This document shows positions 45,224 through 59,230 of a DNA stretch of 64,000 nt, piece after piece. The stretch spans positions 4,785,192 to 4,849,191 of the forward strand of contig NZ_CP024866.1 of NCBI RefSeq assembly GCF_004136015.1, written 5' to 3'. Under the pieces are notes generated by a model. It searched no databases, was not told where the DNA came from, and saw only the letters and a program-made list of their open reading frames with translations. Position numbers and translations under genes: made by a program. The stretch comes from Pseudomonas sp. ACM7 (GTDB taxonomy: Bacteria; Pseudomonadota; Gammaproteobacteria; Pseudomonadales; Pseudomonadaceae). The stretch's first letter is position 1, and each line of letters starts with the position of its first letter.

Positions 45224-45334
45224 AAAAGATCGTCCGAACGCGGCCCGAGCCTTCGGCAGCTCCTACGGGATTGGATTTGCACACGGTCAATATAGGAGCT
45301 GCCGAAGGCTCGGGCCGCGTTCGGACGATCTTTT
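45224..45334. repeat. REP-like element, family B variant with 42-bp perfect arms
   Basis: Arms 45224-45265 and 45293-45334 are perfect reverse complements over 42 bases. The outer ends match family B (AAAAGATCG and GGCAGCTCCTA), but the core is changed to a CGTCCGAACGCGGCCCGAGC type. The right arm forms the 3' coding end of cobA. Confidence 0.9.
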
Positions 45335-46048
45335 GATCTCATCACACCCCGCGACGGCACCGATCACCAGGATCGCCGGGCTTTTGAGCTCGAAGCTGCA
45401 GGCGTCTTCTTCCATTGCCGTCAGGTCGCTCCGACATTCCCGCTGGTGTGGCAGGGAAGCGTTTTCAATCATTGCCACCGGTGTATCCGCCGCCATTCCT
45501 CCGGCGAGCAACTGCTCACGAATCTCGCTCAGTTTTGCGACCCCCATATACACCACCAGCGTCGTGCCACCTTGGGCCAGGGCTTGCCAGTTCAGACTGC
45601 TGCCATCCTGAGTGTGGGCGGTGACCAGCGTCACGCCACGAGCAATACCCCGCAGGGTCAACGGAATATCGCATTGCGTTGCGCCAGCAAGCCCGGCAGT
45701 GATGCCGTTGACCAGTTCCACTTCGACCCCATGTTCACGTAGCCACTGCGCCTCTTCGCCGCCCCGGCCAAAAATGCACGGGTCGCCACCCTTGAGCCGC
45801 ACCACGCATTTACCGTGGCGGGAATAACGCAGCATCAGCCGATGAATGAACGCCTGAGGTGTGGAGCGACAGCCGCCGCGTTTGCCCACGGGAATGATCC
45901 GCGCCTGCGGGCAATGTTCCAGCACCGCGTCGTTGACCAGGTCATCGATCAGCACCACATCCGCTTCGCTCAGCGCCCGCACGGCCTTGAGGGTCAACAA
46001 TTCCGGATCGCCAGGACCCGCACCCACCAGCCAGACTTTTGCGCTCAT
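45287..46048 (-). CDS. cobA: uroporphyrinogen-III C-methyltransferase
   Basis: From the ATG at 46048 (AGGA eight bases upstream) 253 residues with the SUMT pattern: WLVGAGPGDPELLTLKAVRAL, VVRLKGGDPCIFGRGGEE, and VYMGVAKLSEI. It makes precorrin-2, the siroheme precursor for the nitrite reductase encoded in the same operon. It follows nasA by 11 bases. The last ~15 residues (KRSSERGPSLRQLLY) are encoded by one arm of a REP-like repeat, and the stop codon lies just beyond it, so the natural end has probably been replaced. Confidence 0.9.
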   Translation of the reverse strand: MSAKVWLVGAGPGDPELLTLKAVRALSEADVVLIDDLVNDAVLEHCPQARIIPVGKRGGCRSTPQAFIHRLMLRYSRHGKCVVRLKGGDPCIFGRGGEEAQWLREHGVEVELVNGITAGLAGATQCDIPLTLRGIARGVTLVTAHTQDGSSLNWQALAQGGTTLVVYMGVAKLSEIREQLLAGGMAADTPVAMIENASLPHQRECRSDLTAMEEDACSFELKSPAILVIGAVAGCDEIKRSSERGPSLRQLLY

Positions 46049-46059
46049 AGTGTTTTTCC

Positions 46060-48774
46060 TCACGAGGTGACGGCGACCGGCTGCGCAGTGGCGGCCAGCA
46101 AGCGCTTGATTTCCGGGACGCAGGAGCCGCATTGCGTGCCGCAGCCCAATTCTTGTTTCAAACCCTGCAGGTCCAGGCCGCGGCTAATGCCGGCGCAGAC
46201 CGCGCTTTGGCTGACGTTTTTGCAGTTGCACAGGGTTTTGTTACCGATAGCCGGCGTACTGGTGTTGCCCGGCGGTGCGCTCAGCGGTGCCAGTAACCAG
46301 CGCCGCAGCTGTTCGTCAGCGCGACCTTCCAGCCACAGGCTTTGCAGCCAGTGTTGGGCAAGGGTTTCACCGGCCAGGCGAATTGCAGTGATCCGGCCGT
46401 TCTCGATCCGCACCCGTTTACCGATGGAGCGCCGTGGGTCGTCGTAGGCCAAAACCGGGCCATCGTTGAGTCCCAGGCATTGATCGATATCACGCAGCAA
46501 TTGCGGGTCGGGCGCGACGGCGCTGGCAGCGCGTATCAGCAGCGCGGGGCGTTCGCGGCCGGCCAGGCTGAGGCTGACGTAGGAAAACGCCTCACAGAGC
46601 GGTCGTAGCGTCTCAAAATTCTGTTGAACATTGCCCTCGATCAGGGCGAACAGGTTCCACGGCAGTTGCACCGGTTCCAGGCGTACGCCGCTGTGCTTGA
46701 GTTCGGGTTGTTTCGACAAAGGGTCGAAAGCCGGTTGGGTGAGCGCATTTACGCCGCCCTTGAGGAAGCGGTCACCCCAATGCATGGGCAGAAAGGCCTG
46801 ACCAGGTCGCACGCTGTCGTCACTGCCAACGGCGACAATCACTGCGCCACGGCGACTTTTCAGACTGACCAGGTCGCCCGATTGCAGCCGATGCCGACGC
46901 AGTTCATCCGGGTGCAAACTCAACACGGCTTCGCTGACGTGGCCGAATAGTTGTGCGGCAGTGCCGGTGCGGCTCATGCCATGCCATTGATCCCGCAGGC
47001 GGCCGGTGATCAGAGTCAGCGGGAAGCGCGCGTCGCGCTGTTCCTTGGCGGCGCGATACGGGTCGGCCACGAATTGCGCACGTCCGCTGGCCGTCGGGAA
47101 AATTCCGTCCAGGTACAGCCGGGCCGTGCCTTGGCTGGCGCCAGTGGGGAAGGGCCATTGCTGCGGGCCGAGGCGGTCGATCAGTGCATGACTGATGCCG
47201 GACAAGTCCAGATCACGCCCGCGGGTCAATTGCTTGTATTCGTCGAAGACCTGCGCCGGGTTTTCAAAGGCAAACAGGCTGGTTTGCCCGGGACGCAGAT
47301 ATTTTTCCAGACGCTGTGCGAAATCCACCGTGATCGCCCAGTCAGAGCGGGCTTCACCGGGTGCGATGATCGCCCGGCGAACGTGGGAAATGCGACGTTC
47401 AGAGTTGGTCACCGTGCCGTCCTTTTCGCCCCAACTGGCTGCAGGCAGCAGCAGGTCAGCGAAGGCCGCGGTTTCTGTGGTCCGGAACGCTTCCTGCAAC
47501 ACCACGAACGGGCAGGCTTCCAGTGCCGCGCGCACGGCGGTTTGATCCGGCATTGATTGCGCCGGGTTGGTGCAGGCGATCCACAGCGCCTTGATCTTGC
47601 CGCTGCGCACCTGCTCAAACAACTCGATAGCGGTGAGCCCGGTGTTTGCAGGCAGTTGATCCACGCCCCAATACGCCGCCACTTCCGCGCGATGTTCGGC
47701 ATTGGCGGCTTCGCGATGGCCGGGCAGCAGGTTCGACAAGCTGCCGGTTTCGCGGCCACCCATGGCATTTGGCTGACCGGTCAGGGAGAAAGGTCCTGCA
47801 CCGGGGCGGCCGATTTGCCCGGTGGCCAGGTGCAGGTTGATCAGTGCGCTGTTTTTCGCGCTGCCGGCGGTGGACTGGTTCAAGCCCATGCACCACAGCG
47901 ATAGGAAGCTGGGTGAAGTGCCAACCCATTCGGCGCATTGCTGCAGTTGCTCGACACTGATCCCGCAGAGCTGCGAAACCATCTGCGGCGTGTAATCACG
48001 CACCAGGTTTTTCAGTTCGGCCAAGCCTTCGGTGTGGGCCTTGATGAAGTCGCGGTCAACCCAGTCTTCCCACAGCAGCAGGTGCAAAATCCCATGGAAC
48101 AAGGCGACATCGGTGCCTGGCAGAATCGCCAGGTGCAGGTCGGCCAGATCGCAGGTGTCGGTACGACGCGGGTCGATGACGATGACTTTCATCTGCGGCC
48201 GGCGGGATTTCGCTTCCTCCAGGCGACGGAAAAGTATCGGGTGGGCGTAGGCCATGTTGCTGCCGACGATCATCACGCAGTCGCTCAATTCCAGGTCTTC
48301 GTAGTTGCACGGCGGTGCGTCGGCGCCCAGGCTGCGCTTGTAACCGACCACTGCCGAAGACATGCACAGGCGCGAATTGCTGTCGATGTTGTTGGTGCCC
48401 ACCAGCGCTCGCGCCAGTTTGTTGAAGGCGTAGTAATCCTCGGTCAGCAATTGTCCGGAAATGTAGAACGCCACGCTGTCCGGGCCGTGTTCGGCGATGG
48501 TCTCGGCAAAAACGCTGGCGGCGTGATCAAGGGCGGTGTCCCAGTCGGTGCGACTGCGGGCCAGGCCTTTGCCCAGGCGCAGTTCGGGATACAACGCCCT
48601 GGCTGCGAGATCGCCGGTCAGGTGCAAGGTAGAGCCTTTGCTGCACAGTTTGCCGAAGTTGGCCGGGTGGGCCGGATCGCCGCTGACGCCGAGAATGCGC
48701 TCGCCGTCATGCTCGATCAGCACGCCGCAGCCGACCCCGCAATAGCAGCAGGTGGAAGCGGTGATCTGGTTCAT
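46060..48774 (-). CDS. nasA: assimilatory nitrate reductase, catalytic subunit
   Basis: 904 residues from the ATG at 48774. An N-terminal [4Fe-4S] site (Cys9, 12, 16, 44), the molybdopterin domain (NSRLCMSSAVVGYKRSLG, GLNQSTAGSAKN) and a C-terminal BFD-like [2Fe-2S] domain (LCNCKNVSQSAVCAGI ... GCGTQCGSC) mark the NAD(P)H-linked cytoplasmic NasA type. It reduces nitrate to nitrite. The ATG overlaps the nirD stop by one base, so the genes are co-translated. Confidence 0.92.
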   Translation of the reverse strand: MNQITASTCCYCGVGCGVLIEHDGERILGVSGDPAHPANFGKLCSKGSTLHLTGDLAARALYPELRLGKGLARSRTDWDTALDHAASVFAETIAEHGPDSVAFYISGQLLTEDYYAFNKLARALVGTNNIDSNSRLCMSSAVVGYKRSLGADAPPCNYEDLELSDCVMIVGSNMAYAHPILFRRLEEAKSRRPQMKVIVIDPRRTDTCDLADLHLAILPGTDVALFHGILHLLLWEDWVDRDFIKAHTEGLAELKNLVRDYTPQMVSQLCGISVEQLQQCAEWVGTSPSFLSLWCMGLNQSTAGSAKNSALINLHLATGQIGRPGAGPFSLTGQPNAMGGRETGSLSNLLPGHREAANAEHRAEVAAYWGVDQLPANTGLTAIELFEQVRSGKIKALWIACTNPAQSMPDQTAVRAALEACPFVVLQEAFRTTETAAFADLLLPAASWGEKDGTVTNSERRISHVRRAIIAPGEARSDWAITVDFAQRLEKYLRPGQTSLFAFENPAQVFDEYKQLTRGRDLDLSGISHALIDRLGPQQWPFPTGASQGTARLYLDGIFPTASGRAQFVADPYRAAKEQRDARFPLTLITGRLRDQWHGMSRTGTAAQLFGHVSEAVLSLHPDELRRHRLQSGDLVSLKSRRGAVIVAVGSDDSVRPGQAFLPMHWGDRFLKGGVNALTQPAFDPLSKQPELKHSGVRLEPVQLPWNLFALIEGNVQQNFETLRPLCEAFSYVSLSLAGRERPALLIRAASAVAPDPQLLRDIDQCLGLNDGPVLAYDDPRRSIGKRVRIENGRITAIRLAGETLAQHWLQSLWLEGRADEQLRRWLLAPLSAPPGNTSTPAIGNKTLCNCKNVSQSAVCAGISRGLDLQGLKQELGCGTQCGSCVPEIKRLLAATAQPVAVTS

Positions 48775-49091
48775 CAGCTTGCTTCCCGCAGGGCCAGCAA
48801 CACCCGGCCATTCTCGACCCGTGCTGAATGGTGGTGAGCGCAACCGATGTCCGGGGCCTGGGCTTCGCCGGTCTCCAGGTCGATCTGCCAGTTATGCAGC
48901 GGGCAGGCGACCCGTTTGCCGTAGATCAAACCTTGGGACAGCGGCCCGCCCTTGTGCGGGCAACGGTCGTCGAGTGCGAAAACCTCATCGTCGCTGGTAC
49001 GAAAAATCGCGATGTCACCTTTCGGGCCGGCGATGATCCGCGAGCCCAGGGCATTGATTTCTTCCAGTGCGCAGATATCCAGCCAGTTCAT
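48774..49091 (-). CDS. nirD: nitrite reductase small subunit
   Basis: 105 residues from the ATG at 49091, which overlaps the nirB stop as ATGA. A Rieske-like fold with complete cluster ligands: CPHKGG and CPLHNW (CxH and CxxH). Some NirD proteins lack them, so electron transfer by a real Rieske cluster is likely here. Works with NirB to make ammonium from nitrite. Confidence 0.9.
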   Translation of the reverse strand: MNWLDICALEEINALGSRIIAGPKGDIAIFRTSDDEVFALDDRCPHKGGPLSQGLIYGKRVACPLHNWQIDLETGEAQAPDIGCAHHHSARVENGRVLLALREAS

Positions 49092-51556
49092 GCCGGCACC
49101 TCCAGGTTCTTCACTGTGATGACGTCGAATTCTTTCTTCAGCAGCGGTTGTTCCAGGCGTTCCTTCCACGGGTCCTGTTCGAACGACAAGGAGAATTGCA
49201 AGCGATCGTTGAGCGCCTTGCGCCGCTCCGGGTCCTCCAGCACGGCTTTCTTGATGTGTTCCATGCCGACCCGTTGCAGGTAGTGCACGGTGCGTTCGAG
49301 GTAGAAAGCTTCTTCGCGATAGAGCTGCAGGAACGCGCCGTTGTATTCACGCACTTCTTCGGCGGTCTTGAGCTTGACGAAGAATTCCGCGACTTCGGTT
49401 TTGATCCCGCCGTTGCCACCGATGTACATCTCCCAGCCCGAATCCACGCCGATAATTCCGACGTCCTTGATGCCCGCTTCCGAACAGTTGCGAGGGCAAC
49501 CGGAGACGGCCAGTTTCACTTTGTGCGGCGACCACATGTTGAACAGGTCGTGCTCAAGCTCAATGCCCAGTTGCGTGGAATTCTGGGTGCCGAAGCGGCA
49601 GAACTCGCTGCCGACACAGGTCTTCACGGTGCGGATGGATTTGCCGTAGGCGTGGCCGGACGGCATGTCGAGGTCCTTCCAGACGCCCGGCAGGTCCTGC
49701 TTCTTGATCCCCAGCAAATCGATACGCTGGCCGCCGGTAACCTTGACCATGGGCACGTTGTATTTGTCGGCTACATCGGCAATGCGCCGCAGCTCCGAAG
49801 GATTGGTCACACCGCCCCACATCCGTGGGACTACAGAGTAAGTGCCATCTTTCTGAATGTTGGCGTGGGCACGTTCGTTGATCAGGCGCGATTGCGGATC
49901 GTCCTTGGCTTCGCCCGGCCAGGTGGAAATCAGGTAGTAGTTGAGCGCCGGGCGGCACGTGGCGCAGCCGTTCGGCGTGCGCCAGTTCAAATAGCTCTGG
50001 GTGCCTGCGATGGTCAGCTGATGCTGCTCGCGGATGGCCTGGCGGATTTGCCCATGATTCAAGTCGCTGCAACCGCAAATGGCTTTCTCGCTTTTCGGTT
50101 TGACGTCTGCTGCGCCGCCCACGGTGTTGATCAGGATCTGTTCCACCAACCCTGCGCAGGAGCCGCAAGAGCTGGCAGCCTTGGTGTGTTTCTTGACGTC
50201 GTCGACGCTGAACAACCCGTGTTCCTGAATCGCCTTGACGATGGTGCCTTTGCACACGCCGTTGCAACCGCAGACTTCGGCGGTGTCGGCCATGCTCATG
50301 GCTTTGTCCTGGCCCTGATGTCCTACATCGCCGAGAGCCAGCTCCATGGATGAAGAGCCGCCGAACATCAGGTGATCGCGGATCTGCGCGATGTCGTGAT
50401 TCTCACGTATCTGCCGGAAATACCAGCCACCGTCTGCCGTATCGCCGTACAGACAGGCCCCGACCAGCACGTCATCCTTGATCACCAGTTTTTTGTAGAC
50501 CCCGCCGATAGGGTCGGAGAGGGTGATGGTTTCGGTACCTTCGCCGCCCATAAAGTCGCCGGCGGAGAACAGGTCGATGCCGGTCACTTTCAATTTGGTC
50601 GACGTCACCGAACCTTTGTAGGTGGCGAAGCCCAATTGAGCGAGGTGATTGGCGCAGACCTTGGCCTGTTCGAACAGCGGTGCTACTAGGCCGTAAGCGA
50701 TACCTCGGTGGCTGGCGCATTCGCCGATGGCGTAGATGCGTGGGTCGTAGGTTTGCAGGGTGTCGTTGACCAGGATCCCGCGGTTACAGGGAATGCCGGA
50801 TTTTTCCGCGAGCTCGGTGTTAGGTCGAATACCGGCGGCCATCACCACCAGGTCGGCGGGGATGATGTCGCCGTTCTTGAACTCAACCGAGCCGACCCGG
50901 CCATTGCCTGCATCGTGCAGGGCCTGGGTTTGCTCGCAAAGACGAAAGTGCAAGCCGCGGGCTTCCAGGGCAGTTTGCAGCAACTGGCCGCTGGTTTTAT
51001 CCAGTTGCCGTTCCAGCAGCCATTCCCCGATGTGCACCACGGTGACGTGCATGCCGCGCAGCATCAGGCCGTTGGCGGCTTCCAGGCCGAGCAGGCCGCC
51101 ACCGATCACCACGGCGTGCTTGTGGGTTTTCGCGGTGTCGATCATTGCCTGGGTGTCGGCGATGTCGCGGTAGCCGATCACGCCGTGCAAGGTGTTGCCG
51201 GGGATCGGCAGGATGAACGGAGTCGAGCCGGTGGCGATCAGCAGGCGATCGTATTCGGCCTCGCTGCCGTCTTCGGCGATCACGCGGCGTTTGACCCGGT
51301 CAATCTCCACCACTTTGCGGTTGAGCAGCAGCTTGATGTTGTTGTCCAGGTACCAGTCCAGATCGTTGAGCACGATCTCTTCGAAGGTCTGTTCACCGGC
51401 CAGCACCGGTGACAGCAGGATGCGGTTGTAGTTGGTATGGGGTTCGGCGCCGAAGACCGTGATGTCGTACAGCTCATTGCTCAGCTTGAGCAGTTCTTCC
51501 AGGGTGCGAACCCCGGCCATGCCGTTGCCGATCATCACCAGTTTTAGTTTTTTCAT
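49088..51556 (-). CDS. nirB: assimilatory nitrite reductase [NAD(P)H], large subunit
   Basis: 822 residues from the ATG at 51556 (GGAG six bases upstream). N-terminal FAD/NAD(P) domain (IGNGMAGVRTLEEL, VIGGGLLGLEAANGL), two BFD-like [2Fe-2S] regions (CGCNGVCKGT near 428 and CGCSDLNHGQ near 491), then the siroheme/[4Fe-4S] domain with cysteines in CVGSEFCRFG (~643) and SGCPRNCSEA (~685). It reduces nitrite to ammonium. Preceded by a sigma-54 promoter and an antitermination leader. Confidence 0.94.
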   Translation of the reverse strand: MKKLKLVMIGNGMAGVRTLEELLKLSNELYDITVFGAEPHTNYNRILLSPVLAGEQTFEEIVLNDLDWYLDNNIKLLLNRKVVEIDRVKRRVIAEDGSEAEYDRLLIATGSTPFILPIPGNTLHGVIGYRDIADTQAMIDTAKTHKHAVVIGGGLLGLEAANGLMLRGMHVTVVHIGEWLLERQLDKTSGQLLQTALEARGLHFRLCEQTQALHDAGNGRVGSVEFKNGDIIPADLVVMAAGIRPNTELAEKSGIPCNRGILVNDTLQTYDPRIYAIGECASHRGIAYGLVAPLFEQAKVCANHLAQLGFATYKGSVTSTKLKVTGIDLFSAGDFMGGEGTETITLSDPIGGVYKKLVIKDDVLVGACLYGDTADGGWYFRQIRENHDIAQIRDHLMFGGSSSMELALGDVGHQGQDKAMSMADTAEVCGCNGVCKGTIVKAIQEHGLFSVDDVKKHTKAASSCGSCAGLVEQILINTVGGAADVKPKSEKAICGCSDLNHGQIRQAIREQHQLTIAGTQSYLNWRTPNGCATCRPALNYYLISTWPGEAKDDPQSRLINERAHANIQKDGTYSVVPRMWGGVTNPSELRRIADVADKYNVPMVKVTGGQRIDLLGIKKQDLPGVWKDLDMPSGHAYGKSIRTVKTCVGSEFCRFGTQNSTQLGIELEHDLFNMWSPHKVKLAVSGCPRNCSEAGIKDVGIIGVDSGWEMYIGGNGGIKTEVAEFFVKLKTAEEVREYNGAFLQLYREEAFYLERTVHYLQRVGMEHIKKAVLEDPERRKALNDRLQFSLSFEQDPWKERLEQPLLKKEFDVITVKNLEVPA

Positions 51557-51627: not shown

Positions 51628-51667
51628 AAAAAAAGGCGTCCCGCTAGTTGCCTAGCGAGGACGCCTT
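51628..51667 (-). terminator. leader terminator upstream of nirB
   Basis: On the minus strand a 15-bp stem with one bulged base: arms 51659-51667 plus 51652-51657 pair with 51633-51641 plus 51642-51647 around a four-base loop. A seven-base T-run follows, 71 bases before the nirB ATG. Its 5' arm overlaps the proposed P2 hairpin. Confidence 0.85.
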
Positions 51668-51714
51668 TGTCCTGGTCCCGTTCTCTCGGGCAGCGCATCC
51701 TTCGTCGTTGAAGG
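51658..51714 (-). promoter_or_regulatory. ANTAR (NasT) antitermination target in nirB leader
   Basis: On the minus strand, P1 is CCTTC-AACGAC-GAAGG (51699-51714) and P2 is AGGAC-AAAGGC-GTCCT (51658-51673). Both have six-base loops with A at position 1 and G at position 4, as required by ANTAR proteins. P2 uses bases of the terminator's 5' arm, so the two folds exclude each other. An extra stem CCCG-AGAGAA-CGGG (51677-51690) also fits the loop rule and is an alternative P2. Confidence 0.75.
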
Positions 51715-51741
51715 CTGGGCTTTATGTATGGTGAGAAAGGT

Positions 51742-51760
51742 AATGCAGTGGTTGTGCCAA
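51742..51760 (-). promoter_or_regulatory. sigma-54 promoter of nirBD-nasA-cobA
   Basis: Minus strand TTGGCACAACCACTGCATT: GG and GC are separated by ten bases, exactly as in -24/-12 promoters. Transcription should start about 12 bases after the GC, just before the leader hairpins. Confidence 0.75.
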
Positions 51761-51855
51761 GTCGCACAAATGCCGAATTTATGGGCTCTTGTCATGGGAG
51801 GAGGTATTTCCGTGCACCGGTTCAATGCGCGATGCCCGGTTTTGAAGCAGAAAAG

Positions 51856-51934
51856 TCAAAAGATCGCAGCCTACGGCAGCTCCACAGGAGATCGTGGGCA
51901 CCCGTAGGAGCTGCCGCAGGCTGCGATCTTTTGA
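51856..51934. repeat. REP-like hairpin, family B
   Basis: Inverted TCAAAAGATCGCAGCC / GGCTGCGATCTTTTGA arms around ~45 bases, between the kinase gene stop and the nirB promoter. It likely ends the transporter-kinase transcript. Confidence 0.84.
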
Positions 51935-51956
51935 TCTTTTGGGTGCAGTGAAAAAC

Positions 51957-53627
51957 TCAGCCATGAAACAGTAAAAACAGCAGCACCAGATTCACCAGCA
52001 ACGACACCAGCGCCAAGGTTCGCCAGACCTTCAACGGTTCGCGCTCCAGCAACGGTCTGGGTCGCACGCTCAAACTGCGCCGCTCGCCCTGTTCCACTAG
52101 CAGCAACCATTCTTCCGCCGTTTCAAAACGTTGACCCGGATCCGCCGCCACGGCGCGCTCCAGACTTTGCGCAATCCATTCCGGCAGGTCGGGTCGATAG
52201 CGACTGGCGCTGACAGAAACCCCGAACCGTGGGCGCTGGAAGGCTTCGATTTCGCCGTAGGGATAATGCCCGGTGAGCAGGAAATACAGGGTCACGCCGA
52301 CGGCATACAAATCCTGTTGCGGTGTCGGTGCTTCCCCGCGAAAGGCTTCCGGCGCGATATAGCTGGGCGTTCCGGGCAAGGCAGAAGGTTGGTCTTCGGA
52401 CAGGCCTGGGCAGTAGGCGAGTCCGAAGTCCAGCAGGCGTAATTCGCCGTCGTCCCCCAGTAGCAGGTTCTCCGGTTTGATGTCTCGATGGAGAATCTGC
52501 CGTCGATGCAGCATGCCAACGGCTCGCAGCAGGCGTTCGGCCAGATCCTGCCATTGAGGCAGAGGCAGCGGTCCGACATCGGCGTGCAGCTCCGCCAACG
52601 TAGATCCGGAATATTCCCGCATCACGTAGTACAAATGCTGACGCTGACTGCTGGCATGGACTTCAGGGAAATGCCGCCCGGCCACGCGCTTGAGAAACCA
52701 TTCTTCCGACAGCAACGCCTGCCCGGCCAAGTGATCGTCGCGCAGCGCGCCTGGCAAGGTTTTCAGCAGCCAGGGTTGTTGTTGCCCATCGCGTACCCGA
52801 TAAAGCAACGACTGCTGGCTCTGACCGAGTATCCCTTCGACCTGCCAACCTTCGAAAGTCTGGCCTGGTTTCAAGGCTGGCGGCAGCGGCCATTGCTGCA
52901 AATGAATCAATGCATCGCCGATGCTCGTTTCACCGAGGGCATCGACCCGCACCAACAAGGCGCTGGCGTTGTCCTGGCTGCCGGCCAGATGCGCCGCGTT
53001 GACCAAGGTCTGCGCAGCGCTGTTCAAATCCGGTTGATCGCGCAGAATTGCCGCAATCGCGGTGTCGCCCAGCACGGCCCAAATGCCGTCGCTGAGCAGT
53101 ACGAAACTTTCGTTCAACCGCAGTTCGCCATCGAGAAAATCCAGCACCAAATGCTGATCGAGCCCAAGTGCCCGTTTGAGCACATGCTGCATGCCCGGCT
53201 GGTCCCAGACGTGATCTTCGCTGACCCGTTGCAAGGTGTCAGCGTGCCAGCGATAAACACGGCAATCGCCGACATGGGCCAAGGTAAATCGCCTACCGCG
53301 CATGACCAAAGCACTGACAGTGGTGAGCAACGGTTGCCCACCGCCATTGGCCTGCAACCAGCGATTTTGTGCCAGTAGCAGGCGATCCAGTGCCTGCGCG
53401 ACGCCCCAGGTTTCCGGCGTGGCGTAGTAATCCAGCGCCAGAGCCTGCAGCGTCGAGCGGGCGGCGAGGCCACCATCGGCGCACTGGCTGACGCCATCGG
53501 CGATGGCGAACAGGTAACCCTTGCTCGCCGCCAGCGCCGGGGCTGGAGTCACCAGACGCAGGGCGTCCTGATTCTCCTCGCGAGGGCCAATGGCGCTCGC
53601 TTCGGCAAAACTCAGTTGCAGGCTCAT
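51957..53627 (-). CDS. PP2C phosphatase / Ser-Thr kinase fusion with C-terminal membrane anchor
   Basis: 556 residues. N-terminal PP2C-type phosphatase (1 to ~235: REENQDAL, AIADGVSQ, HVGDCRVYRW, LLSDGIW, GSQDNASA with the metal aspartates), then a Hanks-type kinase (~255-520) with HRDIKPENLL (~380), DFGLAY and SYIAPEAF, and a single hydrophobic helix at the end (ALVSLLVNLVLLFLLF). Phosphatase and kinase on one chain could act on the same target. The ATG lies seven bases after the nitrate transporter stop. A kinase gene occupies this place in other pseudomonads too. Target unknown; a link to nitrate uptake is inferred. Confidence 0.88.
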   Translation of the reverse strand: MSLQLSFAEASAIGPREENQDALRLVTPAPALAASKGYLFAIADGVSQCADGGLAARSTLQALALDYYATPETWGVAQALDRLLLAQNRWLQANGGGQPLLTTVSALVMRGRRFTLAHVGDCRVYRWHADTLQRVSEDHVWDQPGMQHVLKRALGLDQHLVLDFLDGELRLNESFVLLSDGIWAVLGDTAIAAILRDQPDLNSAAQTLVNAAHLAGSQDNASALLVRVDALGETSIGDALIHLQQWPLPPALKPGQTFEGWQVEGILGQSQQSLLYRVRDGQQQPWLLKTLPGALRDDHLAGQALLSEEWFLKRVAGRHFPEVHASSQRQHLYYVMREYSGSTLAELHADVGPLPLPQWQDLAERLLRAVGMLHRRQILHRDIKPENLLLGDDGELRLLDFGLAYCPGLSEDQPSALPGTPSYIAPEAFRGEAPTPQQDLYAVGVTLYFLLTGHYPYGEIEAFQRPRFGVSVSASRYRPDLPEWIAQSLERAVAADPGQRFETAEEWLLLVEQGERRSLSVRPRPLLEREPLKVWRTLALVSLLVNLVLLFLLFHG

Positions 53628-53634
53628 TGAGGCC

Positions 53635-54846
53635 TCAGACTCGAGCAGCGGTCACGGCTGCCGAACCCCAAGTGGTTCTCCAGCGACGTTTCACGCCGTG
53701 CAGACCGAACCAGGCCAGAACGCCAAGACTGGCGAACAACCACAAGGCCAGTTGATAACTGCCGGTGCTTTGCTTGATCGCGCCCATGCCTGCTGCCAGC
53801 GCAAACCCACCGATACCGCCGGCCATGCCGATCAAACCGGTCATCACACCGATCTCCCGACGAAAACGCTGCGGCACCAATTGGAAAACAGCGCCGTTAC
53901 CGGCACCCAAACCGAGCATGGTGCAGACGAAAAGTGCCAGCGCCGCGTAGGAGCTCGGCAGATTGAAACCCACCGCAGCGATGCAGACTGCCGCCACCGT
54001 GTACATCCCCAAGAGGGTGCGAATGCCACCGAAACGGTCGGCCAGAGCGCCGCCCAACGGACGCATCAAGCTGCCACCGAACACGCAGGCCGCCGTGTAG
54101 TAACCGGCGGTCACCGGGCTCAGGCCATATTGGTCGTTGAAATAGCCAGGCAGGGCGCTGGCCAGGCCGATGAAGCCGCCGAAGGTCACGCTGTAGAAAA
54201 ACATGAACCACCAGCTGTCGCGGTCGCCCAGGGCCTTGAAGTAGTCGGACACGGACTTGGCTTTCGGCCGCTCAGGCGCGTTTTTGGCCAACCAGGCGAA
54301 GACGATGATGGTCAGAATCAGCGGGATCAGGGCGAAGCCGAACACGTTGCTCCAGCCAAACGCAGCCGCCAGCACCGGGGCGATCAGTGCCGCGAGCACG
54401 GTGCCCGAGTTACCGGCACCGGCGATACCCATGGCTTTGCCTTGGTGTTGGGGTGGATACCATTGCGACGCCAGCGGCAGGGCGACGGCGAAGGATGCGC
54501 CGGCCATGCCGAGGAACAGGCCCAGCACCAACGCTTGTTCATAACTGTGGATGCCGAGCTTCCAGGCACCAAACAGTGCGCAGATGACGATCACCTGGCC
54601 AATCAGCCCGGCGGTTTTCGGCGACAGGCGATCAGCCAGCAAGCCCATTACAAAGCGCAATACCGCCCCGGCCAGAATCGGCGTGGCCACCACCAGCCCG
54701 CGCTGCTGGGTGGTCAGGTGCAGGTCGGCGGCGATTTGCACTGCCAGTGGGCCGAGCAGGTACCAGACCATGAAACTCAGGTCGAAATAGAGGAAGGCCG
54801 CGAACAATGTCGGGGTATGGCCAGATTTCCAGAAGCTTGATTTCAT
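53635..54846 (-). CDS. nitrate/nitrite MFS transporter (NarK/NasA type)
   Basis: 403 residues, about 12 membrane helices, start MKSSFWKSGHTPTLFAAFLYFDLSFMVWYLLGP in parts (FLYFDLSFMVWYLLGP). The two nitrate-signature regions are present: GAGNSGTVLAALIAPVLA and GLGAGNGAVFQLVPQRF. AGGTG precedes the ATG. It should take up nitrate for NasA. It has its own sigma-54 promoter and antitermination leader upstream. Confidence 0.9.
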   Translation of the reverse strand: MKSSFWKSGHTPTLFAAFLYFDLSFMVWYLLGPLAVQIAADLHLTTQQRGLVVATPILAGAVLRFVMGLLADRLSPKTAGLIGQVIVICALFGAWKLGIHSYEQALVLGLFLGMAGASFAVALPLASQWYPPQHQGKAMGIAGAGNSGTVLAALIAPVLAAAFGWSNVFGFALIPLILTIIVFAWLAKNAPERPKAKSVSDYFKALGDRDSWWFMFFYSVTFGGFIGLASALPGYFNDQYGLSPVTAGYYTAACVFGGSLMRPLGGALADRFGGIRTLLGMYTVAAVCIAAVGFNLPSSYAALALFVCTMLGLGAGNGAVFQLVPQRFRREIGVMTGLIGMAGGIGGFALAAGMGAIKQSTGSYQLALWLFASLGVLAWFGLHGVKRRWRTTWGSAAVTAARV

Positions 54847-54946
54847 CGCGCACCTCAGCTGTTAGGAGTCTCGAGAAGGAGTCATGAGCTTGCAGGTGGG
54901 GCGCCGCATCGGCCGCACCACCGGCCCCGGTCTGTGGGGCCAAAAC

Positions 54947-54993
54947 AAAAAAACGCCGCCACCGGATTCGCCAAAGGGCAAATGAGGTGAGCG
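54947..54993 (-). terminator. leader terminator upstream of the nitrate transporter
   Basis: On the minus strand a long broken stem (CGC-CACC-TTTGCC pairing with GGCGAA-GGTG-GCG) with a CTTT loop is followed by seven Ts (54953-54947). Its 5' end shares bases with the P2 hairpin. It lies 100 bases before the transporter ATG. Confidence 0.75.
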
Positions 54994-55032
54994 ACGTCTT
55001 TGTCGTAGGTGGGGCAACCGCCGTTGGTTACC
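54991..55032 (-). promoter_or_regulatory. ANTAR (NasT) antitermination target in transporter leader
   Basis: P1 is GGTAACC-AACGGC-GGTTGCC (55013-55032) and P2 is CGAC-AAAGAC-GTCG (within 54991-55006). Both six-base loops have A1 and G4. P1 and P2 are separated by a short linker, the expected layout of an ANTAR RNA target. Confidence 0.75.
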
Positions 55033-55046
55033 TGTAGTGATTACCT

Positions 55047-55062
55047 AGCGAGATCTGTGCCA
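55047..55062 (-). promoter_or_regulatory. sigma-54 promoter of the nitrate transporter
   Basis: Minus strand TGGCACAGATCTCGCT, with GG-N10-GC spacing. It lies just upstream of P1, so the leader would begin near 55036. Confidence 0.7.
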
Positions 55063-55085
55063 CATCTAGAGTTTGTGCCGAGACG

Positions 55086-55160
55086 AAAAGATCGCAGCCT
55101 TCGGCAGCTCCACAGGTGTACGCGATACCAAGTAGGAGCTGCCGAAGGCTGCGATCTTTT
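55086..55160. repeat. REP-like hairpin, family B
   Basis: Inverted AAAAGATCGCAGCCTTCGGC / GGCTGCGATCTTTT arms just after the nasT stop. On the minus strand it ends in CTTTTCG and may terminate the nasST transcript. Confidence 0.82.
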
Positions 55161-55166
55161 TGCTCT

Positions 55167-55742
55167 TCAGCCCAACAACTCACTCATGGCGATGATCTGC
55201 TCCGCCACCTGAATCAGCTTCTGCTGACGGCTCATGGCCTGGCGGCGCATCAGGGTGTAGGCCTCTTCCTCGTTGCAGTCCTTCATTTTCATCAGCAGCC
55301 CTTTGGCCAGCTCGATGCGTTTGCGCTCGGCCAGTTGCTGGTCGCGGGCATTGAGTTGGGCGCGCAGGGCCTGGTCGCTTTCAAAGCGCGCCATGGCCAC
55401 GTCGAGAATCGGCTGCAAGCGCTGTGCGTGGATGCCTTCGACGATGTAGGCACTGACGCCGGACTTGATCGCCTGACGCATCACATCGGGGTCATGTTCA
55501 TCGGTAAACATCACGATTGGCCGCGGTTGATCGCGGCTCACCAGCACCACTTGTTCCATCACATCGCGGCTCGGTGACTCGGTATCGATCAAAATCACGT
55601 CTGGACGCACCGTTTCGACGCGCGCGGGCAGGTCGATGGTCAGGCCCGACTCGTCGATCACCTCGAACCCGGCTTCGGTCAGGGCCGCCTTCAGGCGACC
55701 GACTTTCTTCGCGGTGTCGTTGATCAGCAGGATACGCAACAT
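55167..55742 (-). CDS. nasT: NasT, ANTAR-domain antiterminator
   Basis: 191 residues: a receiver-like N-terminus (LLINDTAKKVGRL, VILIDTESPSRD) in which the usual acidic pair is Asn-Asp, and a C-terminal ANTAR domain (LAERKRIELAKGLLMKMKDCNEEEAYTLMRRQAM). NasT binds paired hairpins in leader RNA and stops terminator formation. NasS holds it inactive without nitrate. The gene ends before a REP-like hairpin and begins 15 bases after nasS. Confidence 0.92.
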   Translation of the reverse strand: MLRILLINDTAKKVGRLKAALTEAGFEVIDESGLTIDLPARVETVRPDVILIDTESPSRDVMEQVVLVSRDQPRPIVMFTDEHDPDVMRQAIKSGVSAYIVEGIHAQRLQPILDVAMARFESDQALRAQLNARDQQLAERKRIELAKGLLMKMKDCNEEEAYTLMRRQAMSRQQKLIQVAEQIIAMSELLG

Positions 55743-55757
55743 ATTCGCAGTCTCCTG

Positions 55758-56969
55758 TCAGCGGCTGGCGAGAAGGGGCGAGCTGTCGCTCATGGCGTGC
55801 AGCTTGAAACTGCGGGCATAGCCGGCGGGGTCCAGGGCATCCCAGACCTTGCCGTCGATCAACTGGCTGCTGCGCATTGGCTGATCACTCGCGGCCACAC
55901 CGACAGCGGTGGCGGCCTCTCGATACAAGTCTAGTTGCTGGACCTGACGGGCCACGCCCAGGTAGTCCGGGTCGTCGCGCAACAAACCCCAACGGCGGAA
56001 CTGGGTCATGAACCACATGCCATCGGACAGATACGGCAGATTGACCTCGCCTTCACCATGGAAGCGCAGCGCGTGCGGATCTTGCCAGCGATTACCCAGC
56101 CCATCGGCGTAGTCACCGAGCAATCGCGGCTCGATGCAGTCGAGCGGTGCGTCGAGATATTCGGGCGCGCTCAAGAGCTTCGCGGTGCTGCGGCGATTCT
56201 CGGTGCTTTCTTCGATGAAGCGGCTGGCCTCCAGAATCGCCATCACCAGCGCCCTTGCGGTGTTGGGGTATTGCTCGACAAAGGCGCGGGTGCAACCGAG
56301 GACTTTTTCCGGATGATCGGGCCAGATGGTCTGGGTGGTTGCCATCGTGAACCCCAGATTTTGCTGCACCGCGCTGGCGGACCATGGCTCGCCGACGCAG
56401 AAACCATCGATGCGTCCGGCTTGCAGGTGCGCGACCATTTGTGGCGGCGGCACCACCACACTGTCGACGTCCTGCAACGGATGAATACCCTGACTCGCGA
56501 GCCAGTAATACAGCCACATGGCGTGGGTGCCGGTAGGAAATGTCTGGGCGAAGGTGAGTTTTGGGCGACTTTGGTGCACGTGCCGGTCCAGTGCTTCAGG
56601 ACTGGTCACGCTCAGCGCCTGTAAGCCATGGGAGAGGTTGATGCTCTGGCCATTCTGATTCAGGCCCATGAGCACCGCCATGTCGGTCGACGCGACACCG
56701 CCGATGCCCAAATGCACGGCGTAGATCAAACCGTACAGACTGTGGGCGGCGTCGAGTTCGCCACTGACCAGTTTGTCCCGCAGGTTGGCCCAGGACGACT
56801 GGCGCTTGAGGTTCAGCGTCAGGCCATAAGGTTGGGCAAAGCCCTGCGTGGCCGCGACAACCACGGAGGCGCAGTCACTCAGGGCCATGAAGCCGAGGTT
56901 GATTTCGGTCTTTTCCGGGGCATCGCTGCCGTTGACCCAGGCCAGAGGGTTGGCTGGAACTTCAATCAT
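55758..56969 (-). CDS. nasS: NasS, nitrate-binding sensor
   Basis: 403 residues from the ATG at 56969 (GGAAGGTG upstream). It resembles nitrate ABC-transporter binding proteins (NrtA/NasF: INLGFMALSDCASVVVAA, LDAAHSLYGLIYAVHLGIGG, GFCVGEPWSASAVQQNLG) but has no secretion signal, so it stays in the cytoplasm. It binds NasT when nitrate is absent. Linked to nasT by 15 bases. A leader with terminator lies upstream of this gene as well. Confidence 0.9.
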   Translation of the reverse strand: MIEVPANPLAWVNGSDAPEKTEINLGFMALSDCASVVVAATQGFAQPYGLTLNLKRQSSWANLRDKLVSGELDAAHSLYGLIYAVHLGIGGVASTDMAVLMGLNQNGQSINLSHGLQALSVTSPEALDRHVHQSRPKLTFAQTFPTGTHAMWLYYWLASQGIHPLQDVDSVVVPPPQMVAHLQAGRIDGFCVGEPWSASAVQQNLGFTMATTQTIWPDHPEKVLGCTRAFVEQYPNTARALVMAILEASRFIEESTENRRSTAKLLSAPEYLDAPLDCIEPRLLGDYADGLGNRWQDPHALRFHGEGEVNLPYLSDGMWFMTQFRRWGLLRDDPDYLGVARQVQQLDLYREAATAVGVAASDQPMRSSQLIDGKVWDALDPAGYARSFKLHAMSDSSPLLASR

Positions 56970-56986
56970 CAGTAAACACCTTCCAT

Positions 56987-57010
56987 AAAAAAGCGCCGGA
57001 CCGGCTGCTT
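56987..57010 (-). terminator. short leader terminator upstream of nasS
   Basis: Minus strand AAGC-A-GCC-GGTCC-GGC-GCTT (one bulge) followed by a six-T run, 18 bases before the nasS ATG. Weaker than the other two leader terminators. Confidence 0.55.
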
Positions 57011-57031
57011 GCCAGGGCAAGGCCAAGTGAC

Positions 57032-57071
57032 GACGCCTTTGTCTTTCGACTCATCCCGCCGTTGGCATGAG
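57032..57071 (-). promoter_or_regulatory. candidate ANTAR (NasT) target in nasS leader
   Basis: P1 is CTCATGCC-AACGGC-GGGATGAG (57050-57071, one mismatch) and P2 is GAC-AAAGGC-GTC (57032-57043). Loops have A1 and G4, and the loop sequences match those of the transporter and nirB leaders. The P2 stem is only three pairs and does not overlap the terminator, so this case is less sure. Confidence 0.5.
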
Positions 57072-57089
57072 TGCTGATGTCAGTGACGG

Positions 57090-57105
57090 TGCAAGGCATA
57101 TGCCA
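57090..57105 (-). promoter_or_regulatory. sigma-54 promoter of nasST
   Basis: Minus strand TGGCATATGCCTTGCA, a near-perfect -24/-12 match (TGGCA, TTGCA) with GG-N10-GC spacing, upstream of the nasS leader hairpins. Confidence 0.75.
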
Positions 57106-58700: not shown

Positions 58701-59230
58701 AGGGTGTTGCCCTCACTTGTTGACTGTATTAATCGTGTCGACCTCAATCGAGGTCTGGCAGAAAAACTCCTGCCGTTGGGGCTCGCTGCCGGCGTCGCGA
58801 GCCAAGGTGTTGACGTCATTGCGGCGTCAACCTGTATTGAGTTCTAACCAATGCGTCACATCGAGGGAATGATCGTTTTGTCATAAGGACGTAACGAAAA
58901 AGATGGTATGGCGATAAGTAACACGATGTTGTCCCGTGTCTATTGGCAAAACCCCGGTATGATCAGCCCCGCGCTGCATGATGGGGTTAATCCTTTAGTG
59001 AGAATGTCTCCTGTTGAGCAGGGGGACTATTCGACGAAGGGTCGACTTATGACATTTTGTTGCATCAACTTTTTTATCTGTCTTTGCATCTAAGCTCTTT
59101 TAACCCGAGCTTGCAGGGGTGGGACGGCACACCTTCGTGCCACGCGGGCGCTCTTTTAGAAAAGCGCCTGATTGAAAACCGGGCCGGCAATGCGTTGCCG
59201 GTTCACTTAGCTAAAGGCTCTGGAATTACC
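58701..59230. other. 530-bp region between divergent rmf and rlmKL
   Basis: No gene seen. The rmf side holds four stem-loops (listed separately). The rlmKL side has a hairpin at 59184-59201 (CCGGCAA/TTGCCGG), 30 bases before the ATG, and a partial GCGCT...AGCGC stem before it. Both promoters must be here; I cannot place them. Confidence 0.6.
58740..58830 (-). ncRNA. structured 5' leader of rmf (candidate rmf RNA motif)
   Basis: Four consecutive stem-loops on the minus strand: TTGACG/CGTCAA (58810-58830), GGCTCGC/GCGAGCC (58780-58803), GGCAG/CTGCC (58757-58774) and GACCTC/GAGGTC (58740-58755). A conserved RNA called the rmf motif is known upstream of rmf in Pseudomonas, and position and structure fit. 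Confidence 0.6.

What the first reader, a model, noticed from the sequence alone, without database searches (positions are those of the whole stretch)
51628..57105. Three sigma-54 promoter + ANTAR-leader + terminator modules around nasST
Each of the three minus-strand transcription units (nirB-nirD-nasA-cobA, transporter-kinase, nasS-nasT) has a GG-N10-GC promoter (51742-51760, 55047-55062, 57090-57105) followed by two hairpins with six-base loops that carry A1 and G4 and then an intrinsic terminator before the first ATG. P1 loops are AACGAC, AACGGC, AACGGC; P2 loops are AAAGGC, AAAGAC, AAAGGC. In the nirB and transporter leaders the P2 stem shares bases with the terminator, which gives a direct on/off switch. 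ANTAR control of nas leaders by NasT is known; a complete set with shared loop sequences in one locus is worth recording.
Basis: partly seen in the sequence, partly recalled or inferred. Interest (0 to 1): 0.72.

Follow-up and report, generated by a model that had tools for sequence, protein, structure and literature searches.

The report
Three nitrate-responsive RNA switches around nasST
Three neighbouring gene groups for using nitrate each appear to begin with the same kind of RNA stop/go switch worked by the protein NasT; one switch probably sits on NasT's own gene, an apparently old arrangement that several relatives lack.

Summary
Each of three minus-strand units in a Pseudomonas genome has a GG-N10-GC site, hexaloop hairpins with A1 and G4, and an intrinsic terminator. 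In all three, nasS included, the predicted terminator's 5' arm is the P2 loop plus P2's 3' arm, so P2 and terminator exclude each other. A P2-plus-U-tract pattern matches only these three sites in 6.6 Mb, and one ANTAR protein, NasT, was found. They look like NasT-type antitermination leaders, a known kind: the nirB leader matches Rfam P11 (the position of NalA), the transporter leader Rfam narK RNA. (1) The nasS leader has covarying P1 pairs; with P2 and terminator it occurs in 93 of 127 NasS-bearing genus genomes and before nasS in two genomes of a neighbouring genus. The other 34 have a short leader (27), no own promoter (4) or remnants (3); the short type includes P. putida. The tree suggests presence first, then repeated loss. 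(2) The nirB leader has a third hairpin between P1 and P2, so these lie 41 rather than 23-24 nt apart. (3) narK RNA looks like an ANTAR leader. NasT autoregulation is inferred, not tested. New member of a known kind.

The parts
51744..51759 (-). nirB sigma-54-type -24/-12 site, TGGCACAACCACTGCA
   Evidence: present in the 46 distinct nirB leaders tabulated (a promoter match was required there for a leader to be kept)
51699..51714 (-). nirB leader P1 hairpin, loop AACGAC (51704-51709)
51677..51690 (-). nirB leader extra hairpin Pm, CCCG[AGAGAA]CGGG, between P1 and P2
51658..51673 (-). nirB leader P2 hairpin, loop AAAGGC (51663-51668)
51628..51668 (-). nirB leader intrinsic terminator, overlapping P2 loop and 3' arm
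51635..51771 (-). Rfam RF00625 P11 match, 131.1 bits
49088..51556 (-). nirB; the minus-strand genes after it are nirD (48774-49094), assimilatory nitrate reductase (46060-48774) and a cobA-type gene (45287-46051); starts chosen by eye
55047..55062 (-). transporter sigma-54-type site, TGGCACAGATCTCGCT
55013..55032 (-). transporter leader P1 hairpin, loop AACGGC (55020-55025)
54992..55005 (-). transporter leader P2 hairpin, loop AAAGAC (54996-55001)
54947..55001 (-). transporter leader terminator, overlapping P2
54991..55061 (-). Rfam RF03032 narK RNA match, 80.6 bits
53635..54846 (-). NarK-family nitrate/nitrite transporter
   Evidence: TIGR00886, 311.2 bits, just under its cut-off of 311.7
51957..53627 (-). 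protein with PP2C phosphatase and Ser/Thr kinase parts, 7 bases after the transporter
   Evidence: all matches below curated cut-offs
57090..57105 (-). nasS sigma-54-type site, TGGCATATGCCTTGCA
57049..57072 (-). nasS leader P1 hairpin, loop AACGGC (57058-57063), one G.G mismatch in the stem
57032..57043 (-). nasS leader P2 hairpin, loop AAAGGC (57035-57040)
56987..57040 (-). nasS leader terminator, overlapping P2
55758..56969 (-). nasS, nitrate-binding sensor protein (name recalled, from its place beside nasT and the literature; one search gives only weak SsuA-type matches)
55167..55742 (-). nasT, the only ANTAR protein found in the genome

Best explanation
The three units form one small NasT regulon. 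When nitrogen is scarce, NtrC and sigma-54 polymerase start each transcript; a terminator ends it after about 90-106 nt. Without nitrate NasS holds NasT, the terminator forms from the P2 loop and 3' arm onward, and transcription stops. With nitrate or nitrite NasT is free, binds the A1/G4 loops of P1 and P2, holds P2 shut, and so prevents the terminator. Because nasST has such a leader, NasT should also raise its own and NasS's synthesis. Shown here: sequences, predicted folds, mutual exclusion, conservation, covariation in P1, distribution. Taken from literature on relatives: NtrC dependence, NasS-NasT release by nitrate, NasT binding of other leaders. Inferred: that NasT acts on the transporter and nasS leaders; positive autoregulation.
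For: Folds and overlap. Rfam P11 and narK matches. One ANTAR protein and three pattern sites in the genome. nasS leader core, 32 sequences: 7 of 9 P1 pairs changed on both sides in some sequence, 53 such cells against 21.6 shuffled, covariation 0.285 against 0.102 +/- 0.016, 0 of 500 shuffles as high, slid versions at most 0.093. These 32 were picked from 207 upstream regions for spacing 23, A[AG]NG loops and the inner CC/G pairs, near copies dropped, not for the outer stem. Transporter/nasA core, 28 sequences: covariation 0.232 against 0.150 +/- 0.013, 0 of 500; here a stem was required when picking, so this is weaker. Model R1, not trained on nasS leaders, finds 19 of 37 other nasS upstream regions at E up to 0.01. 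narK RNA with ANTAR 129, neither 14, ANTAR only 4 (three of these have P11), RNA only 2 of 149. Twenty narK sites away from nasST precede nitrate reductase or NarK-type transporter genes (20 of 20 regions taken, by eye, two of them from another reading frame's resemblance). Spacing 24 and 23 here; 24 in eutP by the numbering A29/A53 (PMC3369931, passages). NtrC dependence of nirB, nasA, nasS, nasT in P. aeruginosa (PMC7214821, passages) and of nasS, nasT and other nas genes in P. stutzeri (PMC8443478, passages). NasT binds NalA, the nirBD leader (review PMC12830290, passages).
Against: P2 pairs hardly vary, so P2 has no covariation support, and six nasA leaders have a mismatch in it. In one search one measure, pairs with a change on both sides, is not beyond shuffles (7 against 5.6, 57 of 500). 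The sigma-54 motif is not above chance by itself and no clear NtrC sites were found. In P. putida, nirB, nirD and nasA rose under nitrogen limitation in an rpoN mutant too (PMC7801951, passages). In Bradyrhizobium predicted NasT hairpins stand before narK and bjgb, yet these genes rose in a nasT mutant (PMC6759348, passages), so a hairpin does not prove NasT activation. R1 finds the own nasS leader only weakly (E 0.87, rank 19 in the genome; E 0.0084 in the window) and in 20 of 30 nirB leaders only P2. 25 of 127 nasS leaders fail the P1 rule, many by internal loops seen by eye. G085 and G132 have a narK or P11 match without an ANTAR hit (G132 is 88% complete). No transcript or binding data for this genome.
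Confidence: 0.82

Rival explanations
1. The nirB and transporter leaders are NasT-controlled, but the nasS leader is a decaying leftover that sets only a fixed read-through level.
For: 27 of 127 relatives have a short leader with the promoter 48-92 nt before nasS and no hairpins; 3 more keep remnants; nasS P1 stems often have internal loops. On the tree the label L needs 6 changes. In this genome P1 has a G.G mismatch and the terminator is the weakest of the three.
Against: 93 of 127 keep P2 and terminator (90 by rule, 3 by eye); P1 shows 53 both-side-changed cells against 21.6 shuffled; the leader also precedes nasS in two genomes of another genus.
Confidence: 0.25
2. The nirB leader and P11 form a free small RNA acting in trans.
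For: Rfam lists P11 as a gene, described as an sRNA.
Against: It starts at the nirB promoter and ends at a terminator that P2 excludes; a review describes NalA as the nirBD leader bound by NasT (PMC12830290, passages).
Confidence: 0.05
3. In the nirB leader NasT uses the middle hairpin Pm as a contact (P1+Pm, at the canonical 23 nt, Pm+P2, or all three), so nirB differs in mechanism from the other two.
For: P1-Pm spacing is 22-24 in the 42 of 46 leaders where both were found; Pm loops have A1 and G4 in 39 of 46 (38; L210 by eye). In L210 and L211 the first hairpin has no A1/G4 hexaloop by eye while Pm has one. NasT released by nitrate is oligomeric (PMC3795266, abstract).
Against: In most leaders Pm is closed by G-C rather than the C-G seen in NasR SELEX (PMC7496416, passages); 7 of 46 Pm loops lack A1, G4 or both; five P. 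putida-group leaders have other sequence there without an A1/G4 hexaloop, two of the five folding with a hairpin at that place; Pm does not overlap the terminator.
Confidence: 0.3

Closest known systems
NalA / Rfam P11, leader of nirBD, with NasT
   Same: The nirB leader here matches P11 at 131 bits and stands in front of nirB; sigma-54, NtrC and NasT control are described for NalA (review PMC12830290, passages).
   Different: The Rfam P11 structure draws P1, Pm and the terminator but not P2. That P11 and NalA are the same RNA is recalled; here it rests on the shared position.
narK RNA, Rfam RF03032
   Same: Transporter leader 80.6 bits, nasS leader 34.9 bits; the consensus begins at the -24 GG and ends in P2.
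   Different: Rfam models only the P1 hairpin, and nothing in the call links it to ANTAR. Whether its discoverers made that link is unknown to me: the paper is not held. NasT-type hairpins before a narK gene were predicted in Bradyrhizobium (PMC6759348, passages).
EutV, NasR and AmiR two-hairpin ANTAR sites
   Same: Hexaloops with A1/G4, C-G closing pair, P2 overlapping the terminator, spacing 24 in eutP (PMC3369931, PMC7496416, passages).
   Different: Here one NasT is predicted to serve three units within 5.5 kb including its own operon; nirB has a third hairpin.
NasS-NasT of Paracoccus denitrificans and Bradyrhizobium
   Same: NasS-inhibited ANTAR antiterminator and leader hairpins before nas or nos genes (PMC3795266, PMC5424462, PMC6759348, passages).
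   Different: In Paracoccus nasTS is reported under NtrC and the hairpins lie before nasA; no ANTAR leader before nasTS is mentioned in the 12 of 35 places I saw.

Membership tests
ANTAR two-hairpin antitermination leader | Two tandem hairpins with six-base loops, A at 1 and G at 4 | tested here: met
   All three leaders
ANTAR two-hairpin antitermination leader | P2 overlaps an intrinsic terminator | tested here: met
   All three, by predicted fold
ANTAR two-hairpin antitermination leader | Spacing of the loops near 24 nt | tested here: inconclusive
   24 transporter, 23 nasS; 41 nirB with a hairpin in between; 22-31 in the 64 transporter leaders that pass the rule
ANTAR two-hairpin antitermination leader | Stems supported by compensatory change | tested here: met
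   P1 of nasS leaders; P1 of transporter/nasA leaders, picked for a stem. P2 varies too little to test.
ANTAR two-hairpin antitermination leader | An ANTAR protein binds it and read-through depends on it | not testable with these tools
   Co-occurrence only
Rfam P11 (RF00625) | Score over gathering threshold | tested here: met
   nirB leader 131.1 against 70 bits
Rfam narK RNA (RF03032) | Score over gathering threshold, transporter leader | tested here: met
   80.6 against 43.2 bits
Rfam narK RNA (RF03032) | Score over gathering threshold, nasS leader | tested here: not met
   34.9 against 43.2 bits, E 6.1e-4
NtrC/sigma-54 promoter | GG-N10-GC element at a fixed place | tested here: met
   the motif alone is not above chance in the window
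NtrC/sigma-54 promoter | NtrC sites upstream | tested here: inconclusive
   Two one-mismatch sites in 300 b before nirB (0.58 expected), none before the other two

The most novel reading that the evidence does not exclude
NasT antiterminates its own operon: a leader probably older than the genus makes the nitrate antiterminator dependent on itself, giving a positive loop, braked by co-made NasS, with possible memory of nitrate. Some lineages replaced it by a short leader (the P. putida group and one more clade), placed nasST directly behind another gene, or broke the leader. Work in P. putida would miss it if the strains used share the short leader (not checked for the published strains). In addition the nirB leader carries a third hairpin that could let a NasT oligomer bind.
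Probability: 0.5. Interest if true: 0.55.

Novelty: new member of a known kind. Interest (0 to 1): 0.42.

Why it matters
It gives a closed test case: one ANTAR protein, three targets, 5.5 kb. It joins two Rfam entries, one called an sRNA and one of unstated control, to one mechanism. The nasS leader, missing in some close relatives, lets feedback in a one-protein RNA circuit be compared between natural strains with and without it.

Tried and rejected
The sigma-54 motif as evidence by itself was dropped: 6 matches, 5.14 expected. An NtrC-site search was inconclusive.

R1 (transporter/nasA core) proved too narrow to define a regulon: the own nasS site ranked 19th in the genome. R2, built from 32 nasS leaders including this one, gave the nasS site (E 1.5e-9, a training sequence) and, second, the transporter site (E 0.127, not in training), and no other match at E up to 1 (150 of 7541 candidates of the first look were scored). 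It did not list nirB.

The rule for P1 in nasS leaders was changed twice on the same 127 regions: 59, 50 and 65 with P1+P2+terminator, 31, 40 and 25 with P2+terminator, 37 each time with none. I report the last. Shuffles: 0 and 15 of 1016, 0 and 16 of 2540. Of the 37, I judged by eye 27 short, 4 without a promoter match within 300 nt, 3 remnants and 3 leaders that the rule missed (L033, L086, L099). In the named set one of the 18 P2+terminator calls (L267) looks doubtful by eye.

nirB leaders: 55 loci were examined; 6 gave no leader by the rule (L122, L212-L216; the last five were then read by eye), 3 were duplicates, 46 were counted.

The narK match in G003 lies in a fumarase-like gene, by eye, and was rejected; that in G085, which has no ANTAR hit, precedes an apparently shortened nasA, by eye, and is read as a relic.

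The BLAST parts failed through my own script error; genes behind L312-L315 were named by eye from the ORFs.

Literature: in the listings, and the passages I opened, I saw no statement that NasT controls nasST by a leader in Pseudomonas; the main papers (Romeo 2012, Wang 2012, Weinberg 2017, Nie 2024) are not held. One search found no held paper with the words narK RNA or narK motif.
Full report
What is there. The window lies in a 6.6 Mb single-contig genome; the nearest named records are Pseudomonas. On the minus strand lie nasS-nasT (56969-55167), a NarK-family transporter followed by a protein with PP2C-phosphatase and kinase parts (54846-51957), and nirB followed by nirD, assimilatory nitrate reductase and a cobA-type gene (51556-45287). 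Each unit is preceded by a GG-N10-GC element, a leader of 90-106 nt counted from an assumed start 12 nt after the GC, and a U-tract.

Switch anatomy. Folded to the U-tract, all three leaders show P1 plus a terminator whose 5' arm is the P2 loop and P2's 3' arm. Folded only to P2, each forms P1 and P2. Forcing P1 and P2 costs 11.8, 11.8 and 6.7 kcal/mol for nirB, transporter and nasS. The exclusion therefore holds for nasS too.

Genome-wide. The P2-plus-U-tract pattern hits three sites, these three. Rfam narK RNA ranks the transporter and nasS leaders first and second in the genome; the third hit has E 0.116, and the nirB leader is fourth at E 0.449. One ANTAR domain is found. Across 149 genus genomes (own included) narK RNA is found in 131 at E up to 0.01 (125 over the cut-off) and ANTAR in 133: both 129, neither 14, ANTAR only 4 (G001, G018, G050, G146; all but G050 have a P11 match), RNA only 2 (G003 spurious, G085 relic). 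G132, one of the 14, has a P11 match without an ANTAR hit; it is 88% complete. Related genomes are not independent, so this is association, not proof.

Relatives. Twenty narK sites on other contigs or far from nasST, chosen from the list, were fetched. All 20 have the two hairpins and stand before nitrate reductase (15) or NarK-type transporter genes (5), read by eye, L145 and L146 from another reading frame's resemblance. Transporter leaders: of 90 nasS loci, 69 contain the transporter start; 64 of 69 pass the rule, among them 21 of the 23 genomes with a short nasS leader. Of the five that fail, four have the hairpins with a shorter U-run and one (L013) has G in place of A1 in the P2 loop.

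nasS leader. 127 of 149 genomes have NasS at 68% identity or more (G034's is split). In 93 the leader has P2 and terminator (90 by rule, 65 of them with P1; 3 by eye); 27 have the promoter 48-92 nt before nasS and no hairpins; 4 show no promoter match within 300 nt and lie behind another gene; 3 keep remnants. In 80 named records, the best 80 of 586 and partly the same genomes, 64 have P2 and terminator by rule (46 with P1) and 16 do not, among them P. putida (two strains), P. monteilii, P. inefficax and P. huaxiensis. P1 covariation is strong. R1, not trained on nasS leaders, finds 19 of 37 nasS upstream regions at E up to 0.01. A NasS+NasT tree of 90 rows, made by the quick method, has long leaders (61) on both sides of a midpoint root, the short type in two groups (20 and 3 rows), the type without own promoter in one and remnants in three places; label L needs 6 changes (shuffled mean 24.7), at least 5 by starred branches. 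The root is for drawing only. A search of 194 genomes of the order with R2 gave 8 with a match at E up to 0.001: four of the genus, two of genus g3 before nasS (G241, G316; a third, G269, had none, and 166 genomes without a match are not listed), one of genus g2 before a NarK-type transporter, and one of another family before a nitrate-binding-protein-like gene (genes by eye). Presence first and repeated loss is thus the simpler reading; transfer is not excluded.

nirB leader. In 46 distinct leaders P1-P2 spacing is 39-42 and P1-Pm 22-24 where P1 was found (42), and the Pm stem is nearly invariant TCCCG/CGGGA. Pm loops have A1 and G4 in 39 of 46. Five P. putida-group leaders have other sequence there; two of the five fold with a hairpin in that place, without A1/G4. 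Either Pm is a spacer that folds the linker back to about 25-27 nt (41 minus 14-16), or a contact. The data do not decide.

Known or new. NasT control of the nirBD leader is published (PMC12830290, passages); NtrC control of all three units in P. aeruginosa is in published tables (PMC7214821, passages). A sigma-54 survey predicts promoters for the gene group that includes nasT (PMC12316311, passages). Against strict sigma-54 control, nirB and nasA were still induced in a P. putida rpoN mutant (PMC7801951, passages). I saw no statement that nasST carries an ANTAR leader or that Rfam narK RNA is one, in the searches named, in a library that lacks the key papers.

Noticed in passing
51854-51936 and 55090-55165: Two near-identical long inverted repeats (AAGATCGCAGCCT..CGGCAGCTCC type) directly after the kinase gene and after nasT (sequences printed); they resemble repeats used as terminators in Pseudomonas (recalled).
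   Followed up: no
58719-58851 (-): Rfam rmf RNA match, 111.4 bits.
   Followed up: no
51957-53627 (-): A protein with PP2C phosphatase and Ser/Thr kinase parts is placed behind the nitrate transporter under the NasT-type leader; in the 60 loci L040-L099 a match to it was found in 37. Its role in nitrate use is unclear.
   Followed up: partly
L187:1501-1570: Genome G085 has no ANTAR hit yet keeps an intact-looking leader in front of an apparently shortened nitrate reductase gene.
   Followed up: partly
L080, L085, L094, L182: nasS shows no promoter match within 300 nt and directly follows the end of another gene (C-terminus like a flavoprotein reductase, by eye), so nasST may be under another leader there.
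   Followed up: partly
L030, nasS upstream: The leader has lost P2 and terminator while its near neighbour on the tree, L027, keeps them: a recent loss.
   Followed up: partly
L013, transporter upstream: P2 loop GAAGAC instead of AAAGAC: a natural loss of A1.
   Followed up: no
L314: In a genome of another family a similar leader precedes a nitrate-binding-protein-like gene, by eye.
   Followed up: no
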